Positions 11,345-32,500 of a stretch of DNA of 64,000 nt are shown here, one piece after another (within the stretch, counting starts at the first letter, position 1; each line of letters opens with the position of its first letter). Source of the stretch: Styela clava (lineage: Eukaryota; Chordata; Ascidiacea; Stolidobranchia; Styelidae). Made by a program: the position numbers and the translations under genes. The notes beneath the pieces were generated by a model. It worked only from the letters and a program-made list of their open reading frames with translations, was not told where the DNA came from and searched no databases. The stretch lies in NCBI RefSeq assembly GCF_964204865.1, contig NC_135254.1, positions 11,351,001-11,415,000 of the forward strand. The letters are read 5' to 3'.

Positions 11345-11746
11345 TTAGTGACGTCCACGGAAGCTGGCAGAATCAAATCCACCACGGCCCCTGAAACCAC
11401 CGCCTCCTCTGCTGAATCCGCCTCTTCCGCGGCCGCGAACTTGAGCTTTCAAAATAGCCGCTTTTCCTCTTCCGGCAGAACCACCGCGTTGTTGCTTCAG
11501 CATCGGAGCATTTTTAAGCATATCAGGCAAAATCATAAACCTAACTTGACTTCCGCGGATGTAAATATTCTGCAACTGTGCTGTTCTACCGTCTCTATAA
11601 GTAACAGTTACATCTGTCATTTGACTATTCATGTTATCCTCAGCTTCTATGAGTTTTCCACGATAAACTTCTCCATTCGCGGTTTCACATGTGATAATAT
11701 GGCCCTCCGCCTCATGAAGTACTTTGATTGGAACTCCAATAGACAT
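11345..11746 (-). CDS. SNRPD3: Small nuclear ribonucleoprotein Sm-D3
   Basis: Sm-D3 is a core subunit of the seven-membered Sm ring on U1, U2, U4 and U5 snRNAs; it works in spliceosome assembly. The 133-aa protein (126 in human) starts [20 protein letters not shown] and carries Sm1 (about residues 5-40, including [20 protein letters not shown]) and Sm2 (about 50-75, including [19 protein letters not shown]). The C-terminal tail from residue 87 is rich in Arg-Gly ([15 protein letters not shown]), the usual substrate for symmetric dimethylation by PRMT5. I chose ATG 11746 because homology begins exactly there; the open frame upstream shows no homology. The gene has no intron. SCAI begins about 1 kb downstream on the same strand. 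Confidence 0.97.
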
Positions 11747-12116
11747 TTTTAATGAAATTATGTGCCAAACAATTGTATTCAGCGAGATAAAAATTGAAAC
11801 TAACACGGCGAGGTCACAACTAGACAATGCGCAAAAGCAACACCGAAGGAAAGCCTTTTTCCCGCGTCCGCGTCTCGTTGCCTCATCGGAACTGTGAAAA
11901 ATATTCGAACGAATGACCTAAATGACGATATTATTAGGTCATTGCCGGTCATTGCTTAAACAGCCTTATTAGACAAAAAGGAAAAATGGATCGTTTTGAA
12001 ATTTTAATTTAAATTAGAAACTAAATTTCGACAACCACTTTGTTTATTTCATTCCGTGTTCATTGACATGTCGTTTACATTTTATTTTAGTTACGTTAAC
12101 CATACGTTATTATTAC

Positions 12117-19450: not shown

Positions 19451-20175
19451 CAGTGATCGAAACGAGGAAAAAAATATGCCTTGTCATCGTTGCGTAAGGG
19501 TGTTGCATCAGCTGACGCGCGCCGGGAATATATTCCTTCAGTCACTGGTGATAGTCGAGTCATTGTTTTGTGTTCGGACTTTCGGTATAGCTCACTTGTT
19601 TTTGAATTGAACTCTTTGACTATGGGAGCGATTGGACTCGCATACGGGTTCATAAACATGTTGATTGTTTTCCAATGTACCGTTCTTTCATTTACTTATG
19701 GTCATAAATAAGTTACGGTACTAGTAACTACTTAAGGAAGGAATTTGTGAAGCTAGAGATTGGAAGAGAGGGTCCCGTACCGTAATTCCTTAATTACTGG
19801 ATCGCTCGAGTAATTCAGTAATCATTAGAAACAACCGGCATCGCTTCAATTCTGTAATAATCACTTACTGACTTAGCGGACAGTTTGACATTGGTGCCAC
19901 AATTATTCAGTACAGCAGCAGCAGTTGCTGTTTTTGTTAGATTGCTTTCAAAGTACTGCCCGATTGTAAATCGCGTTTTTCTGTGTTTGTTTTATTCTCT
20001 TTTGGTGGGCGGGCATGTACATGTACGCTTTTTAACTTTTTTTAAGTTATGCCCGTCACCCAGGTATCTCTGTATTTTGTTTGTCTGTTAACTTTTTGTA
20101 TTGTTTATGTCAGAGAACCAAAATAAATGATTGATTGACTTAATTGAACAGGGACGTAAGACAGTGTAAATAAGT
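19451..20175. other. Upstream region of LRRC58
   Basis: No gene. It presumably contains the LRRC58 promoter and 5' UTR; I see no decisive TATA element. An in-frame TAA nine bases before the LRRC58 ATG (20167) fixes that start. Confidence 0.4.
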
Positions 20176-21291
20176 ATGGCTGCCACTAATCAACCATATG
20201 CAGTTGATTTTTCATGGAAAGGATGTCAAGAATTTCCAGATTTTACCGTCACATGTCCGAGATGTTCTTCGGTTGAATCAGACTCACAAAAAAATGAGAA
20301 AAGCAAAACCTCATTTTGTAGATGGAATTCTTCGTCTATTACCTCTGTCACATCATTGGATATTTCACATAATTTGATACATAGGATTGACCCTTCTCGA
20401 TTTATGGGACTCGCAAATCTTAAAGAGTTGAATTTGAGTAGTAATAGATTGAGACAGCTTCCAGAGGAAATATGCTTTCTGACAAACCTGAGTGAGTTGT
20501 ATGCGACGAATAATGCTTTGGGTACTCTGCCGAAGAATGTGAAATATCTTAAAAAATTGGTGCATTTGAATTTAAGTGGTAACGCATTTAATGACATCCC
20601 TCCATCGAGTCTTGAAATATATTCTCTCAAAATTTTGCAACTTGGCGGAAACAACATTAAAGAAGTTCCTGCATCTATTACTAACTTACAAAGTCTAGAA
20701 GTTCTGTACTTGGGAGGAAACCATATTCAAAATATTCCTGCTGAAGTGGGTGAAATGAAAAGTCTTTCGAGTTTGACGTTGTGTGATAATAAATTATCTT
20801 CGATACCTACAGAACTTGTGAAATTACGAAATCTTCAGTCGTTGAGTTTGCACAACAATCGTCTCACTTATCTTCCACGTGAAATATTACAACTCGTTAA
20901 TCTTGTGGAATTGAGTCTTCGTGGAAACCCGATGGTTATGAGATTCGTACAAGAGTTATCATGTGATCCTCCTTCGCTCGTAGAACTCGCTAGTAGAACA
21001 ATTAAAGCCTTCAAGCTTGATTATATTGATTTGCCAAAAACACTTGTGAACCACCTTAATTCTGCCAAAAAATGTCCGAATCCTCAATGTTCCGGAGTTT
21101 ATTTTAATCAAAAATATCACCAGATTAAATTTGTGGATTTTTGTGGAAAATATCGTCTCCCTCTCATGCAATATCTCTGTTCACCCGAATGCATCTCGTA
21201 TTCATCATGTTCTTCAACAGCTAGTTCAGAAACAGAAAGTGAAGAAGAATTAGAGAACGGGGAAAGAATGAGAAGAGTCCTGCTTGGATGA
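20176..21291 (+). CDS. LRRC58: Leucine-rich repeat protein LRRC58
   Basis: Intronless 371-aa protein, the same length as the human orthologue as I recall it. About nine leucine-rich repeats of the SDS22/plant-like type span roughly residues 55-260 (LKELNLSSNRLRQLPEEI, LVHLNLSGNAFNDIPPS, LEVLYLGGNHIQNIPAEV, LQSLSLHNNRLTYLPREI). The C-terminal block has paired cysteines, CPNPQCSGVYF near 300-309 and FVDFCGKYRLPLMQYLCSPEC to about 339. These resemble a small zinc-binding module and are the most diagnostic part of the family. An acidic tail follows. The family is proposed to be a substrate receptor of a cullin-RING ubiquitin ligase; that role is from the family, not visible here. A TAA in frame just before the ATG supports the start. 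A possible poly(A) signal AATAAA is at 21840. Confidence 0.95.
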   Translation: MAATNQPYAVDFSWKGCQEFPDFTVTCPRCSSVESDSQKNEKSKTSFCRWNSSSITSVTSLDISHNLIHRIDPSRFMGLANLKELNLSSNRLRQLPEEICFLTNLSELYATNNALGTLPKNVKYLKKLVHLNLSGNAFNDIPPSSLEIYSLKILQLGGNNIKEVPASITNLQSLEVLYLGGNHIQNIPAEVGEMKSLSSLTLCDNKLSSIPTELVKLRNLQSLSLHNNRLTYLPREILQLVNLVELSLRGNPMVMRFVQELSCDPPSLVELASRTIKAFKLDYIDLPKTLVNHLNSAKKCPNPQCSGVYFNQKYHQIKFVDFCGKYRLPLMQYLCSPECISYSSCSSTASSETESEEELENGERMRRVLLG

Positions 21292-22264: not shown

Positions 22265-25200
22265 ATGATTTACAAGTTTTTGTTTGTTGCTGCATTTGTG
22301 GCATTGGCATCTGCATCATCATGTGATCTACCTTCAAGATTCTGGTGCGACTCTAAAAAGATTGCAAGCGAATGTGGCGTAAGTTTTTATGTTGAAATAT
22401 TCGATTGTACAATTATAACAAAGAAAATTCAACGACTTTACTCAGCCTGTATATATATAACATCTGTAGATTCAATAAAAGTAAGTCACTGAAAATTACA
22501 TTCTTTTAAAACTAAGAAATAATGATTAATTCAAATGGTTGGCGAAGAGTTTGTACCTGCTGCTATGTGTAGTTTGTTAAAAATTGACTGCGACAACTTG
22601 ATAATTTTGTTTTTCTAGGTTGAATTGCAATGTGCAGAGCGACACTGGATCGAGGATAATGACGCCCAACCTGTCATGCTTGATTTGTACTTTGAATCTC
22701 TTTGTCCAGGTAAAAACGTGACTCATGACAATCTACCATTGAGAGCCATAGTTTGTATAATACTGACACACTGGAGTTGTAGCCAAAGCCATTGTGATTT
22801 CAAACCAGCTCCCTAGCCCTGCTTTTTAATATTTAGGTACGATTTGATTATCATATTGTTCATCACACATATAGAAAAGATAGACATGAAGAAATTCTGT
22901 GTTGTATATTTATGCAAAACGGACTTTGTTAAATTGAAATAACTGAATAATTTATTTTATATTGTTGCAAAACAATGTTACTACATACTAGGTTGCCGTC
23001 AGTTCATCACAAAAATGCTGTACCCTACTTGGAAACAATTTCTTGATACAAAGATACTTAAAATACAACTGTACTCTTACGGAAACGCGAAAGTAAGTCC
23101 TATTTTCAAATGCTTTCAGATTGTAAAAGGTTTATGGTGAATATGCTTTACCCAACTTGGAAAAAATTTTCTGGAACGAATATTATGAAACTTACATCCT
23201 ATCCTTTCGGCAATGCCGATGTGAGTAGAGCATGTTGTATGACGATGTAATCCTCAAAACTTTATTCAATGATCTATTATTGTGATAGGTTAGTTTCAGA
23301 CTGCATGGCTATTTTTGTTGTATTTATGTTGTTTAAATGATCTTGTCCAGTAATTTCTCTCTAATATCTGTAATTTTGTTGTTTTTTCCTCTGGTTGTTG
23401 GTTCCTCTGGCTCTTATTTTGTTTTCCTTGCTTCTGTCCAGTCTCTCACCGATGATCAGTTTTATCTTCCATCATTCTCACTAGAAATTAATGATTGTAC
23501 AAGTAACAAACATCTCAGTGTGCTTATAGTTTAGATTGGAATGTGTTACTCTGATGTTTTTTATTAATCGAATGTTTTTCAAAATTGCGTGTATACTCGT
23601 GATTGTGTGAGATAATCATTAACATCTGTTGTTTAAAATAATTTTTAGCAAATATCCAGCAAAAACAACTTGCAAAGTATACATTACACATTGTAAATCA
23701 AATATAAAAATTTGAATTATAGTCAAATTTGATTTTTGGAATAATTGTCCGTTACTCTTGTTTTATTGTTATACATAAGTTTTGGTATCATTATTTCATA
23801 GTTAAACAATCAATGCGAGCGAGAAAATTTGCTCAAGCAAAGCAATCGCGCAAAAGTAAGACTGGAGACTGAACTACATTTTTGAGTATTCAAATGCACA
23901 CATATTAATGTTGCACACTGCCATATTGTAGCATGAATTAACCATAATTTTCATTTAATAGCCTATTTATTACAATAGTTCAATTAAATTTGTAATCCGT
24001 TAGGTTTAATATGGACTTCTATACCCATTTTATAAAAATGCAATTTCTTATTTTAGGAAATGAAAAATGCATCAACAGGTATGTGGGACTTCACTTGTCA
24101 ACATGGACCTCAAGAATGTGTTGGAAATTTAATCGAGGTTTGTAATTCAATTAAAATCACATTTAGACCATGATGCATTTAATAAAGTTAGTGTTATAAT
24201 CTGTAAAAAAATAGCATATTAAATTGCAAACAAATTGCGTAGTATAAAAGAGTGTTGTTTGTATTTTGTCACAAAACTTGCAGTCACATGATTTATCTGC
24301 AATACCAATATCTAAACAGTTTGCACAGACGCTGCATTTTAACATATCTATTTAAACAGTTTGCCAATTTTATCACTCATTTTGAGTTTCTGATTACCGT
24401 CTTCTACAAAACATAAGGTTATAACCAGTGGTGGGATTCAAATTTTTTGTCAGCCGAATTTTTCACAAACAGAACATCGACGGTAACCAGTAACGTTAAC
24501 CGGTTCGCTGATCTCATAAAATTCTGTGAAGTGGTTCTATAGAACCGGTGCGAACCGGCTGAATCCCACCACTGGTTTTTTTACAATATTGACATTAATG
24601 TTATTAGTGTATTGTAAAGATATTTTGTTTTTCACTCTTATTTTACCATATTTTATGAGAAATACCTTTTGATGTTATATAATTTTGGTAATATCATTGA
24701 ATTTTGTGATATATTTTTCAGAACTGCATTCAGAAATACACCATGAATGATCCTATGAAATATTTCCCGATATTTTACTGCATGGAATCGGCTCAGGATC
24801 CAGTTGAGGCTGCTAAAATGGTAAGAAAAAATCATTAAGATTTTTTTCCGCTAAGCAGTTCTCTCTTTAAAATTATGTAGTGTTGTTATTTGCACACTCA
24901 TAGAGTGGTTACAACTCACTGCCAAGCCCATCGTATTAGATGGAGTCAGAGATGGATTTCAAACCAGTTCTCCTGCCCTGTTCAGCCTCTCTGTGAAGAC
25001 TTATCTTTTACGCCTTGGTCCGATTATTCATAGATCTCGTAGATAACAAAACAGTTGTATATATATACTGATTTTTATTTCTATCCACTGTCCTGATGAA
25101 ATTTGTCTGTATAAACATTTGAAACATTGGCAAAATCATATTGTTTGCTCCTTACTGTTTGTGCACGCATTACTATTTTCTAATCCTTTAAGATGGATGA

Positions 25201-26481
25201 GGTCACATCTTTATAGAAAAATAAACAAATTACACTCTTTATCTTCGATATATATATTTCGAATGCCGTCACCTTTACAGTTATTAAAAGTAATTCTATG
25301 CATTCAATTTAGTGTGTAACCAAAGGTGGTTTGAAATGGTCTGATGTTGACACCTGTGCTAAGGGACCAGATGGGAATGCACTCATGCATAACAGTGCTA
25401 TGGCAACTGATAAACTGAATCCTCGTCACACATATGTTCCTTGGGTTACTATCAATGGGGTGAGTGAATTATTTTTTTATCATATATTTTAGATATTATC
25501 TGAAAATAGGATTTGAACATTTTATACTGGGGAGAGGAGAGGGATAAGACAGCTTAATCATATGACAAACCACGACTTCTCGTTCGGTTACCAGTCAATG
25601 TCGTATATTGGATTAGTTAGCAAGTTATTTTTTTCAGGGCATTGGACATGGACAGAAGGTGGAGTAAGCTGTAACCAACCAGAACTGCTCCACCCTACAA
25701 TGGTAGGGAGTAATCCACTCTCACATAAATATCCTCCACAGGATTCAAATCTGCGAGCCCACGCAGGGTGAGCGTACTCCTAATGCTTAGCACAATGCGC
25801 CACACAGCAGAGCCAAAGTTTGACACTCAGATGGAAGCTGGAGAGCCCAACAGAAACAGGGCTCCAGAGCTGGAGCTGTTTTGTTCTCAAACCAGCTCTT
25901 GATGCGTAAGACAAGTAGTGCCTGGCAATGTCATTAGCAAATAGTGGCTCCATTGCTGGAGCATCTCTCCTATCTGTTGCATTAATATATTGCTACAATG
26001 CACAAAATGTGTAGCTAGGATATTGACTCTAATATCTCTCATCCATACAAGTTAAACATTTGCAGAATTCACAATTCATGAAAGATACCTAATTCATGGG
26101 GTTGAATTGAAAAAGTATTTTTTTTCAGCAACATACTGAATCAATGCAAGAGGAGGCTCAGGAAAATCTCCCAAAGCTTCTGTGTGACACCTACAAGGTT
26201 AACAGATTTTTTCAATATTATTGTTGCTTGTGTTTTATATTCATGAAATGAATGTTTGAATTTTTTGTCAAATTTGCTAGAACTTGTTCACCACAGAGGG
26301 TGTCGGTCAGTCATCTGTTGGGCATTCTCTTATTTGTTTATCATATTTTACGACATAATCTTGGGAGGATACAATATATATTGTTATACATTTCACTTGC
26401 ACATTTCAGGGAATGAAGCCCAAGCAGTGCGCGGAGTACATGGAGCCACAACCACTGCTCGTGACTTACAGGGATGATTAA
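22265..26481 (+). CDS. IFI30: GILT-type lysosomal thiol reductase, 8 exons with an alternative exon pair
   Basis: GILT reduces protein disulfides in endosomes and lysosomes. Exons: 22265-22378, 22619-22709, then either 22992-23092 or 23120-23220, 24057-24137, 24722-24820, 25313-25459, 26129-26197, 26410-26481. Either version gives 774 nt, 257 aa plus stop, in phase throughout. Features: signal peptide MIYKFLFVAAFVALASASS; LYFESLCPGC active site (CPDC with the second exon); the diagnostic CQHGxxECxxNxxxxC signature complete as CQHGPQECVGNLIENC across the exon 24057/24722 junction; and YVPWVTING, matching the vertebrate YVPWVTVNG. N-glycosylation is possible at NAS in exon 24057. Introns contain a hAT MITE and SINE-like copies. 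ATTAAA overlaps the stop and AATAAA occurs at 27022 and 27035. In vertebrates GILT serves antigen processing; here innate or digestive proteolysis is more likely. The symbol is by family; invertebrates often have several GILT paralogues. Confidence 0.95.
22735..22820 (+). repeat. Short SINE-like fragment in GILT intron
   Basis: TTTCAAACCAGCTCCCTAGC-CCTG near 22798 matches TTTCAAACCAGTTCTCCTGC-CCTG near 24957 (fragment about 24890-25015), each preceded by CACTGGAGTTG- or CTCATAGAGTGG-type sequence. Probably the same degenerate SINE family. Confidence 0.45.
22992..23092 (+). other. GILT alternative exon 3a (CPGC version)
   Basis: 101 nt, entered in phase 1 after ACTAG and left in phase 0 at GTAAGT. 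With the last base of exon 2 it encodes GCRQF, MLYPTWKQF and YSYGNAK. It supplies the second active-site cysteine (C-P-G-C). Confidence 0.9.
23120..23220 (+). other. GILT alternative exon 3b (CPDC version)
   Basis: 101 nt, entered in phase 1 after CTTTCAG and left in phase 0 at GTGAGT. It encodes DCKRF, MLYPTWKKF and YPFGNAD. 17 of 33 residues after the first match exon 3a, including Cys, MLYPTWK and GNA. It is only 27 nt from exon 3a, too close for splicing between them. Confidence 0.88.
24426..24574. mobile_element. Small hAT-type MITE in GILT intron
   Basis: Left end CAGTGGTGGGATTCA and right end TGAATCCCACCACTG are perfect inverted repeats of 15 bp, the CAGTGGNGG type typical of hAT elements. 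It is 149 bp long, non-coding, and without a convincing 8-bp flank duplication. It also contains GAACCGG/CCGGTTCG palindromic pieces. Confidence 0.8.
25528..25800 (+). repeat. SINE-like repeat in GILT intron
   Basis: Contains GGATAAGACAGCTTAATCAT, ACTTCTCGTTCGGTTACCAG, TTGGATTAGTTAGCAAG and a B-box-like GGATTCAAATCTGCG. It is a full-length but diverged member of the family seen at 31355-31760. The open frame over it is not a gene. Confidence 0.65.
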
Positions 26482-28337: not shown

Positions 28338-30022
28338 TCAATAATACCACCTGTCCGACCTTGATTTGTAAGTATATTTAGCGCCACGATTCGGTGGAGA
28401 ATAAGGTTTACTATGATGTCCTTGCCTCTCATAGTTTGGATTTTGCCATCTGTATGGATTAGGCTGATAAATGGGTTGGCCATAGCGATCATGTGGATTA
28501 TGATAATAATTATAACCATGGAATCCTTCTTGACCAGTAGATTGAGAATTAAAGTGTTGTCGACCATAGGGACGCTGCTGGTACTCGTAATCATAAGAGT
28601 TTGCCAGGTGGAGTGGGTCATACCACTGCTGCCTTAACCCTGTTGAACTGTTATCATAAAACCCAGAATCTGTTTGATAATCATCATGATAAAATCTGTC
28701 TCTTGGATGTAAATTATCTCCATAGGAGTTTCCCTGCTGTGAATGTTTATTTTCTGATGACCGAGATGTCTCATTCTTCTGTGCTACATCGCTGGACGTG
28801 CCAAGCAGATCATCCAAGTATACTTGTCTTTCTATCTTGTAACCCCTTGCTTTTTCAAAAGCTTCGATTGCATCTTCTGGCTTGAAATTTTTTCTGTTTA
28901 CCAAATGTCTGTAATAAAGATATTTCAACAATGTTATAGACTGGGAACATAAATAAAGGATTGCTGGATAGGAGTAGTCATTAGACCCTAGATCTTAGAG
29001 ATATGGATTTTATTCTTCATTTCTGAACAATCAAAATATAACCTTAACTTCCTGAATTTTGCTCGGCCACATGGCGATCATGCTTAGCGTTGAGAATACA
29101 CTCACCACTGCACGTAGGTTTGAACGGGCATAATTATACTGTAGGGTGGCTTGCATAACCGCTGGTTGATTACAGCTTCCTTCACCATCAAGTCAATGCA
29201 TCTGCAACAAATAACTGGTCAACTAATTCGGACATGTAGCCAGACGAGAGGCTGTGGTTCGCCATATGATGAAGTTGTCTAATCTGATTTCATCTCTCCT
29301 GGATAAATATGTAAATTCTATCCTAATATGACATAAATCAAAAAATAAGTTTACCGAAATACAGTATCATTAATCTCAGATATCTGAAACTTGAAAAACT
29401 ATCTAAAAATTATATTTACTTCCTGAATTTGGTACAAATCACCTTCTTAAAAAAGGAGACATTTTTTTGCAAAAATTAGTTTACAAAACTAGAATATAAC
29501 AGCTGTCATCTATGTGAATTTCGAACATATAAGTGAATGCCATGTTAGAATACAGTAATGAAATATATTATTATTGATACTTAAGAAATCTACTTACCTG
29601 CAGATCATATACCCAGTTCTATTCAATCCATGAGTGCAATGAACTGCGATCAACTTGTCATTATCCTGATTTTCATCTTCAAATTTAACAACAACATCAG
29701 AAAATGAGTCCAATACTTCTGATTGCGGTATTACTCTCCCAGGAACAAATATTTTTTTATATTGCACATTTTTTTCTTCAAATTCCTTTGGATCATAATA
29801 CTTTGTAGTAAAGCTCAAGTCTATGACAAGTCCTAAATTATGACCTTTTGATTTCGCCATTTCTAACGCAGTATCACAACCAAACTTTTCGTTCTCACTG
29901 ATGTTTCTTGACAAATGGGGTTTGAGAGGAACTTTCATACAAATGAAACGGGTACCAGGAATTCTTTCCCCCATTGGTGAGTAATCCATCCATCTATCTG
30001 GAGGGCCATTCTTAGGTGCCAT
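28338..30022 (-). CDS. DUSP11: DUSP11, RNA 5'-triphosphatase / RNP-interacting phosphatase
   Basis: DUSP11 (PIR1) removes gamma and beta phosphates from 5'-triphosphate RNAs in the nucleus; it is a cysteine phosphatase related to the metazoan capping-enzyme triphosphatase. Two exons, 30022-29598 and 28908-28338, total 996 nt (331 aa plus stop); the junction splits an Arg codon AG|A. The N-terminal catalytic domain contains DRWMDYSPMGERIPGTRFI, LGLVIDLSFTTKYY, and the P-loop HCTHGLNRTGY with Cys129 and Arg135. After it comes PEDAIEAFEKARGYKIERQVY, matching the human sequence. The tail from about residue 200 is rich in Tyr, Gln, His, Asn, Gly and Arg (YDYEYQQRPYGR, HNPHDRYGQPIYQ) and likely disordered. 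The start is the ATG at 30022; a longer N-terminus in another exon cannot be excluded. PIN4 lies 500 bp upstream on the same strand. Confidence 0.95.
29045..29345 (-). repeat. SINE-like repeat in DUSP11 intron
   Basis: Reverse-orientation family member with ACCATCAAGTCAATGCATCT, CAACTAATTCGGACATG, CCAGACGAGAGGCTGTGG and GTTCGCCATATGATGAAG, ending GATAAATATGTAAATTCT. Confidence 0.65.
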
Positions 30023-30521
30023 AATAATATTGACTCCAAAGAATTATATTGTTAAAAATCAGAATCAGCTTTTTAGGTATTATAAAATGTACTATTTTAG
30101 CTGTTATAAAACACCAATAAAAATTTAGAAGGCCTATGATATAGTAATTCAGCATTTGATAAAAAAGCAGCGAACCAATGTATATCAATAGAAATAACAA
30201 TAAACATTTGTAATCTTTAGATACTTATGTTATAATTCAGCTACTAAATCACTGATAGACCATTATCGAAGTCCAAGAATATTAACCTGAATTGAGTAAA
30301 TTTATACAGTTTGAAAGATATTATAAGATAACACTCTCTATAATGAAAGTCACACATGTTTTTCAAAACAACTTCATAATAAAGTGCTACTTCCATAACT
30401 AAACCAATAAACAAAACTGAGCATGGCAACAATTCTTTTACAGTTTTACGATGCAGAGATGGTTAAGGCCATGATTGTAATTTCCATATTTCATTGCATT
30501 TTTTTTGTGTTGAAAACATTT

Positions 30522-30908
30522 TCATTTCTTTCCCTCAACCATTATAATATGATATCCAAACTTAGTTTTAACTGGAGGATCGGTGTAGACAGCATTTCCC
30601 AATGAACTGACTTGTAAAGCAAAAGCAGCTTCTTGAAATGGTCCAACCATTGACCCTCTTGTCATCCATCCTAAGTCACCTCCAGAACGTGCTTTATCTT
30701 CACTCATTTGAGCAGCAACTTCATTAAATTTACTTCCCGCTTTCAACTTTTCCATTGCTTCCATTATTTTTGAATGTTTTTCACAAAGGATGTGTCTCAC
30801 TTTTACTGCATTTCCTCCTTTCTTTTCTTTCCCCCCACCGCCTTCTGATTTATCTTTCTCTTTGTTAGCACCTTTGCCCTTCGCAGCTCCTCCGCCCTTT
30901 TTTGGCAT
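30522..30908 (-). CDS. PIN4: PIN4, parvulin-type peptidyl-prolyl isomerase (Par14)
   Basis: Small nuclear and nucleolar prolyl cis-trans isomerase of the parvulin family; vertebrate Par14 associates with pre-ribosomes and chromatin. The 128-aa protein has a basic Gly/Lys-rich N-terminus (residues 1-32, [18 protein letters not shown]) for nucleic-acid contact. The rotamase domain runs from about 33 to 128: [58 protein letters not shown], and [14 protein letters not shown]. It lacks a WW domain, as expected for this subfamily as opposed to Pin1. The gene is intronless here. The ATG at 30908 gives the family's MP-K start. DUSP11 follows 500 bp downstream on the same strand, so joint transcription is possible but unproven. 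Confidence 0.97.
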
Positions 30909-32500
30909 TTTACTAATTTCTGAATTTTGTTTTGAAATTGTAACAAAGTCTGGAAGTAGTTACCCTATGTATGTATGTTTATGAATGAATTAAATACAAT
31001 TGGATTGTATACAGTCTCAAGTTCGTAACAATTAAATCAATACCGGTAATACTACATTCATATACCGTGCAGTACATTGATTACAACAATTACAGAAATA
31101 TGGTACAGGTACTGCGGTATGAACGCAGTCAATTCAGCAACTGTAAGAGTTCCTCAAATTACGGAATTACCGGAACGGAACGGAAGAATTCTCGCGTAAA
31201 CGTAAGTCTACCGGAACTGATTTGTAGTTATCTTGAAAAATGTATTTTATACACTTCTTTCCTATTTGCAGTGAAATTAACGAGCATGTGGGAGGGGGAC
31301 AGTGGCGAAAATAACGTTTTAGTGTTACGCCACCTAGCGAGTGGGAATCCTGCTTAATAGGATAGGATGTACATGTTTATCCCGGGGGAGAGAAAAGCCG
31401 ATAAGACGGCTTAATCATATGGCGAACAACGGCCTCTCGTCCGGTTAACAGTCCAGGTCAGGTATGGGATTAGTTAGCCAGTCATTTGTTTTCGGAAGCA
31501 TGGACTTGATGGTGGAGGAAGCCGTCTCAAACGAGTGTTTGGGACGTAAATCTGTAAATATTTGTATAAGAGTTGTTGAAATATGGCACATTGCAAATTT
31601 ACAAGTAAGAAACACTTTCATTTTTCCATTGCTCTCTTTCTTCGTGAAGATGCAAATAGCCGATAGTCAACTTATCGAAATCGGCGGTGTGGCGCATCGT
31701 GCTAAGCGTTAAGAATACACTCGCCGCCTTATCTCCAATTATCCTGCGTTGGATTACGTGAATTACGTGCACGGAATTCAAATTTCATCATCCATATCTG
31801 GTACTCTAAAATGCCTCTTTTGGTATATTCATTTTCATGTTATTGACTTACTTTATTAATGATGTATTTCAATGTAGATCGCTGAACTCTCCATTTCTCG
31901 GAAGCTCTTTCTATAGTTTGCTACCATACCATGTTGGAAGCATTGGAACGGATGCAATGATTTTAAATTGAACTAATCGAAAACGAAAAATAACCCGATA
32001 CCCCAATCCATGTTTGTGCATAGACTGTTATGAAACACTCAATCTATTTACAGCTTGTTTTTTAGTAACAATTTTTGTCACTGTGTTATTTTTGCAATGA
32101 AATTGAACCTGAACCATTTTACGTCAACGAGTGTTTTTTATTCGATATTTTTGTAGGAAAAGCATTGTTGTGATACACATACCATAGCCATGCATTCCAT
32201 CCTATCAAAGTGTATTTATTGAAGTGTAGATTCAGATTCAGATAATTTATTTTTATCATGCAAGAATCAATGCTAACACAACACAAAAGTGTATAACGAA
32301 ATTGGAAAAAAATGAAATATACACGTAAGAAATAATGTCCGAGATTCATTGCAATCGATAAGGGGTCGCGAAGGACTGTAACAGTCTTCGAGTCAGCGAC
32401 ACCTGTTGGCTGTGTATTTATTAATTAGGACCCACCGAGTGTTTATGTTACACAAGTTTGACGCCCGAACGATACCCGTTCGTGTTTTTGTCTTTTTTAT
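30909..32500. other. PIN4 upstream region and repeats
   Basis: No gene. It contains the PIN4 promoter region, in which I see no clear core motif, and the SINE-like copy at 31355-31760. Short open frames here are not supported. Confidence 0.5.
31355..31760 (+). repeat. SINE-like repeat with internal insertion
   Basis: Starts GGATAGGATGTACATGTTTA, then GCCGATAAGACGGCTTAATC, CTCTCGTCCGGTTAACAG, GGATTAGTTAGCCAGTC and GAAGCATGGACTTGATGGTG. About 140 bp of unrelated sequence (near 31530-31670) separates this from the tRNA-like end GTGGCGCATCGTGCTAAGCG. Confidence 0.65.

What the first reader, a model, noticed from the sequence alone, without database searches (positions are those of the whole stretch)
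22992..23220. Mutually exclusive GILT exons, 27 nt apart, that swap the active-site dipeptide
Seen: two consecutive 101-nt exons, both with good acceptors and donors, both entered in phase 1 and left in phase 0, both encoding the second active-site Cys plus MLYPTWK and a GNA end (17 of 33 residues identical). Splicing exon 2 to either gives an intact protein; joining 3a to 3b shifts frame and hits TGA at the seventh codon; skipping both also shifts frame. The gap of 27 nt is below any usual minimum intron length, so steric hindrance should force the choice. The result is CPGC versus CPDC redox motifs; in thioredoxin-fold enzymes the XX residues tune redox potential. I do not know a described case for GILT.
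Basis: partly seen in the sequence, partly recalled or inferred. Interest (0 to 1): 0.82.

Follow-up and report, generated by a model that had tools for sequence, protein, structure and literature searches.

The report
Two swappable exons in GILT gene
A sea squirt gene for a lysosomal disulfide-cutting enzyme carries two alternative versions of its active-site exon, packed too closely to be used together, so one gene can probably make two versions of the enzyme with different catalytic motifs.

Summary
The window is Styela clava (an ascidian): the 3a form of its GILT gene (22265-26481, +) matches a public S. clava 'GILT-like isoform X1' at 256 of 257 residues. Exons 3a (22992-23092) and 3b (23120-23220) are 101 nt each, enter in phase 1, leave in phase 0 and lie 27 nt apart. 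Either gives an intact 257-residue GILT; both or neither shifts the frame. They come from an old duplication: 61 of 101 nt and 17 of 34 residues identical, synonymous sites near saturation, dN 0.39. Both isoforms score alike as GILT (103.5 and 106.1 bits). 3a resembles the exon of a close relative, 3b that of a more distant one, so the pair probably predates the split from the closest relative found (weak statistics). Each exon encodes the second active-site Cys, the active-site helix and the next strand. The swap is CPGC for CPDC, the two commonest motifs among 212 relatives fetched. The public record seen is the 3a form; no RNA data and no record of 3b could be seen. Best reading: sterically enforced mutually exclusive exons. 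The splicing kind is known; my searches found no described case in GILT.

The parts
22265..22378 (+). GILT exon 1, coding part (start ATG, signal peptide region, first part of the saposin-A-like stretch)
22619..22709 (+). GILT exon 2; ends in phase 1 just after the first active-site Cys and Pro (CP|)
22992..23092 (+). Exon 3a, 101 nt: completes CPGC, active-site helix and next strand; the form in public isoform X1
23093..23119 (+). 27-nt gap holding the 3a donor (gtaagt) and the 3b acceptor (ctttcag)
23120..23220 (+). Exon 3b, 101 nt: completes CPDC, same structural unit as 3a
24057..24137 (+). GILT exon 4 with the CQHGPQEC signature; shared by both isoforms
24722..24820 (+). GILT exon 5
25313..25459 (+). 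GILT exon 6
26129..26197 (+). GILT exon 7
26410..26481 (+). GILT exon 8, coding part with the stop codon

Best explanation
Exons 3a and 3b are mutually exclusive exons made by an old tandem duplication within the Styela clava GILT gene. Exon 2 is spliced either to 3a or to 3b, then to exon 4. The donor of 3a and the acceptor of 3b share 27 nt, so the splicing machinery cannot work across the gap (steric hindrance). An mRNA with both or neither exon is out of frame and probably destroyed. One gene therefore makes two GILT thiol reductases that share everything except residues 69-102: the second half of the active site (CPGC or CPDC), the active-site helix and the following strand. Shown: anatomy, phases, frame outcomes, homology, constraint on the pair, and a public protein of the 3a form. 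Inferred: the steric block, use of 3b in the animal, regulated choice, and different redox behaviour.
For: Same length and phases, 27-nt gap, both/neither out of frame. Homology far above shuffles, dN 0.39 with synonymous sites near saturation; in a neutral simulation to the same nt identity 1 of 2000 copies kept 17 or more identical residues and 440 of 2000 stayed open. Both isoforms score as GILT, 3b 106.1 bits and 3a 103.5. Exon 3 coincides with a structural unit in the model. P0002 carries a 3a-like segment (29 of 34 to 3a, 19 to 3b) and P0004 a 3b-like one (23 of 34 to 3b, 17 to 3a); the tree places them so, and 3a+3b as sisters is disfavoured at p-AU 0.0497. Other introns of the gene are 212 to 836 nt. 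In human, 57 mutually exclusive clusters (9%) have a donor to branch point distance under 50 bp (PMC5740500, passages). Public protein of the 3a form named isoform X1.
Against: No transcript of the 3b form was seen. Holding 3a, 3b, P0002 and the rest of the protein together is not rejected (p-AU 0.136), so a duplication confined to the Styela lineage is open, and the segment is only 34 residues long with groups named after the tree was seen. The constraint test is on the pair, not on 3b alone. The species of P0004 is not named and its gene may be a paralogue. The intronless copy on contig C18 is about equally close to both exons (65 and 68 of 102 nt) and gives no support for 3b use.
Confidence: 0.8

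Rival explanations
1. Only 3a is used; 3b is a decaying or rarely used copy of the exon.
For: The one public S. clava protein that I could see is the 3a form, and no 3b transcript was seen. In the model of splicing, 3b has the cramped upstream side: only 27 nt separate it from exon 3a.
Against: 3b is open, keeps its splice sites, the second Cys and the conserved PTW and GNA residues, and scores slightly higher than 3a against Pfam GILT. The pair shows third-position divergence typical of constraint. 3b is closer to P0004 than 3a is.
Confidence: 0.12
2. Mutually exclusive exons are real, but the CPGC/CPDC change is incidental: the exons differ mainly in helix surface, substrate choice or stability, or choice between them serves only to make unproductive, frame-shifted mRNA and so set the amount of protein.
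For: 17 of 34 residues differ over the whole helix and strand, not only in the motif. Both/neither mRNAs are out of frame.
Against: The residue pair between the cysteines is described as a very important, though not sole, determinant of redox properties in related enzymes (PMC5193440, passages). A pure amount switch would not need two constrained coding exons.
Confidence: 0.35
3. The 27-nt gap is a real, spliced mini-intron and both exons can be joined.
For: It has a good donor (8 of 9 U1 matches) and an AG acceptor.
Against: Joining shifts the frame and stops after six codons; the next shortest intron in the gene is 212 nt.
Confidence: 0.03

Closest known systems
Tandem-duplicated mutually exclusive exons with steric interference (human survey PMC5740500; alpha-tropomyosin as the textbook case is recalled, not looked up)
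   Same: Homologous neighbouring exons of equal length, lengths not divisible by three, donor of the first too close to the branch region of the second.
   Different: The boundary lies inside a catalytic CXXC motif, so the choice sets one residue of the active site; gene family and organism differ. No junction reads seen here.
KHK (ketohexokinase) and similar enzymes with swapped duplicated exons (PMC9741552, passages)
   Same: An enzyme in which the swapped region lies next to the active site.
   Different: In the KHK passage the catalytic arginine is the same in both isoforms; here a residue of the CXXC motif changes.
Mouse GILT, solved structure 6nwx
   Same: Fold (TM-score 0.92 by target length, rmsd 1.4), CXXC position and CQHG signature.
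   Different: Active-site motif CGAC in the mouse chain (alignment); Styela offers CPGC or CPDC from one gene.

Membership tests
GILT (PF03227) | Match above Pfam's curated cut-off (22.4 bits) | tested here: met
   3a isoform 103.5 bits, 3b isoform 106.1 bits
GILT (PF03227) | CXXC active site and CQHGxxEC signature | tested here: met
   CPGC or CPDC, and CQHGPQEC in exon 4; the signature's name is recalled
GILT (PF03227) | Thiol reductase activity at acidic pH in lysosomes | not testable with these tools
   No assay
Mutually exclusive tandem-duplicated exons | Adjacent homologous exons of equal length and phase | tested here: met
   101 nt each, phase 1 in, phase 0 out, 17 of 34 residues identical
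Mutually exclusive tandem-duplicated exons | Junction reads from each exon to the outer exons, none (or only frame-shifting ones) between them | not testable with these tools
   No RNA data available; public protein of the 3a form only
Mutual exclusion by steric hindrance | Donor of the first exon less than about 50 nt from the branch point of the second | tested here: inconclusive
   The whole gap is 27 nt, so any branch point between the exons is closer than 50 nt; the branch point was not mapped, and the only yUnAy match in the 60 nt scanned lies inside exon 3a, 40 nt before the AG. Limit from PMC5740500

The most novel reading that the evidence does not exclude
Styelid ascidians keep, in a single GILT gene, both of the active-site types that are commonest among GILT proteins, and switch the redox character of their lysosomal reductase by tissue or immune state through sterically exclusive splicing of the catalytic helix. 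It would be the first described GILT, and perhaps the first thioredoxin-fold enzyme, whose CXXC dipeptide is set by splice choice.
Probability: 0.35. Interest if true: 0.72.

Novelty: new member of a known kind. Interest (0 to 1): 0.55.

Why it matters
The swap lies inside the catalytic motif of a well-studied enzyme fold, so two natural versions of one enzyme, identical outside 34 residues, can be compared directly. That makes the effect of the CXXC dipeptide and active-site helix on lysosomal redox chemistry testable without designed mutants. It is also a compact example of exon duplication doing the work of gene duplication in an enzyme family linked to immunity.

Tried and rejected
Tried without gain: a viral-contig scan for related loci found nothing (1 of 8 scans used). 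RNA folding of 22619-23260 was no more stable than 20 shuffles (z -0.23), so I do not propose a docking/selector RNA mechanism. Literature, listings only: 'GILT' with 'mutually exclusive exons' gave 16 papers, none about this enzyme by title, several on pig gilts; 'lysosomal thiol reductase' with alternative splicing and CXXC gave one, on multiple sclerosis risk genes; mutually exclusive exons with active site, thioredoxin and isoforms gave two, unrelated by title; GILT with ascidian/amphioxus terms gave 19, 12 listed, none on ascidian GILT by title; intron lengths in Ciona gave none. Styela clava with alternative splicing gave 12, none on this gene by title.

Considered and dropped: the gap as a real mini-intron (frameshift anyway); an assembly duplicate (exons only 61 of 101 nt identical); splice-site type mismatch (ordinary GT-AG sites, no formal scoring done). 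I hoped that the intronless GILT copy on contig C18 would show which exon was in the copied mRNA. Its exon-3 part shares 65 of 102 nt with 3a and 68 with 3b, while 3a and 3b share 62, so it does not decide.

Full report
Observation. Coordinates, lengths, phases and frame outcomes were recomputed. Exons 3a and 3b are 101 nt each, 27 nt apart, both entered in phase 1 and left in phase 0. With exons 1, 2 and 4-8 each gives a 257-residue protein. Both together give a stop at the seventh codon of 3b; neither gives a shifted frame. The other introns of the gene measure 212 to 836 nt, or 964 nt from 3a to exon 4 and 410 nt from exon 2 to 3b.

Organism and gene. The 3a protein matches a public Styela clava protein, GILT-like isoform X1, at 256 of 257 residues. 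Both isoforms match Pfam GILT, 103.5 bits for 3a and 106.1 for 3b, cut-off 22.4. A model of P0001 (62-row alignment, mean pLDDT 91.5) matches solved mouse GILT 6nwx best (E 7.7e-18, TM-score 0.92 by target length), bacterial DsbA chains next (best E 4.0e-06). In the model, exon 3 (residues 69-102) covers the second active-site Cys, nearly all of the active-site helix (68-88) and the next strand (91-97). The 3b form was not modelled.

Homology and constraint. 3a and 3b share 61 of 101 nt and 17 of 34 residues; by codon position 22 of 33, 25 of 34 and 14 of 34, the pattern of protein constraint. NG86 gives dN 0.39 and pS 0.744, so dS (3.6) is at the edge of what can be estimated and the ratio of about 0.1 is rough. 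In a neutral simulation to the same nt identity, 440 of 2000 copies stayed open and 1 of 2000 kept at least 17 identical residues. This tests the pair. For 3b alone, the argument is that it keeps conserved positions and scores as well as 3a.

Age. P0002 (79% identical overall) carries a 3a-like segment (29 of 34 to 3a, 19 to 3b); P0004 (58% and 60% to the two forms) a 3b-like one (23 of 34 to 3b, 17 to 3a). A tree with the window segments as separate rows (39 rows: 36 of 212 fetched proteins, chosen by me as tunicate-like or outgroup, plus three window rows) puts 3a with P0002 (99/78) and 3b with P0004 (91/76); neither is starred. Holding 3a and 3b together is disfavoured (9.2 log units, p-AU 0.0497); holding both with P0002 and the rest of the window protein is not rejected (2.5 log units, p-AU 0.136), nor is 3b with the rest (p-AU 0.14). 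So the duplication probably predates the split from P0002's species; how much older is open. The groups were named after the tree was seen.

Own genome. The assembly (376.6 Mb, 379 contigs) was searched with P0001: 10 matches, nine in this gene (the eight exons of the 3a form, and 3b; coordinates converted) and one elsewhere. Search by family PF03227 gave two matches, this gene and the same other place. That place is an intronless open frame on contig C18 with the motif CPDS, the second Cys replaced; it differs from public P0003 at 15 of 255 residues. Candidates are capped, so more diverged copies could be missed. Its exon-3 part is about equally far from 3a and 3b.

Motif. Among the 212 proteins fetched the motif is CPDC in 93, CPGC in 71, CPDS in 11, CGGC in 10, CPFC in 9, CPYC in 7, CGAC in 3, CPAC in 2, CRAC in 1, and not found by the pattern in 5. 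The set was gathered by similarity to this gene, so these are not unbiased frequencies, but each Styela version is a common natural motif. In DsbA-like enzymes the dipeptide is called a very important though not sole determinant of oxidoreductase potential (PMC5193440, passages). That Asp instead of Gly alters thiolate stability and its dependence on lysosomal pH is inference.

Mechanism. The gap holds the 3a donor (8 of 9 U1 matches) and the 3b acceptor. In the 60 nt scanned before 3b the only yUnAy match lies inside exon 3a, 40 nt before the AG; looser matches lie 23 and 11 nt before it. Either way, factors at the 3a donor and at the 3b branch site would overlap. In human, 57 clusters (9%) were flagged for such interference under 50 bp, and 377 (60%) have lengths not divisible by three (PMC5740500, passages). 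Both safeguards exist here. The 3a acceptor is poor in T (5 of 17; the others 8 to 12), which may be where the choice is regulated; that is a guess. Folding gave no sign of a special RNA structure.

What is missing. No transcript data were at hand. The protein library is clustered at 90% and the two isoforms are 93% identical, so a 3b isoform would be hidden in P0001's cluster (4 members, not listed). The splicing kind is known; the instance and the catalytic-motif swap were not found in the searches made.

Noticed in passing
G000 contig C18:5017390-5018133 (locus L001): Intronless second GILT copy with CPDS in place of CPxC (resolving Cys lost). Four other CPDS proteins (P0011, P0147, P0148, P0150) form a separate clade (100/100), so the loss may have happened twice in tunicates. 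It differs from public P0003 at 15 of 255 residues.
   Followed up: partly
window 24423-24577: Element with perfect 18-nt terminal inverted repeats (AACCAGTGGTGGGATTCA), MITE-like, inside the intron between exons 4 and 5.
   Followed up: no
window 22796-22821 and 24955-24980: 26-nt sequence repeated at 85% identity in two introns of the gene, perhaps a fragment of a dispersed repeat.
   Followed up: no
window 20170-21291: Single-exon leucine-rich-repeat open frame of 373 codons just upstream of GILT on the same strand, LRRC58-like by eye (recalled).
   Followed up: no
window 28338-30959 and 11345-11917, minus strand: Open frames that look by eye like a DUSP11/RNGTT-type phosphatase (motif HCTHGLNRTGY), a parvulin-like isomerase and an SmD3-like protein (recalled).
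   Followed up: no
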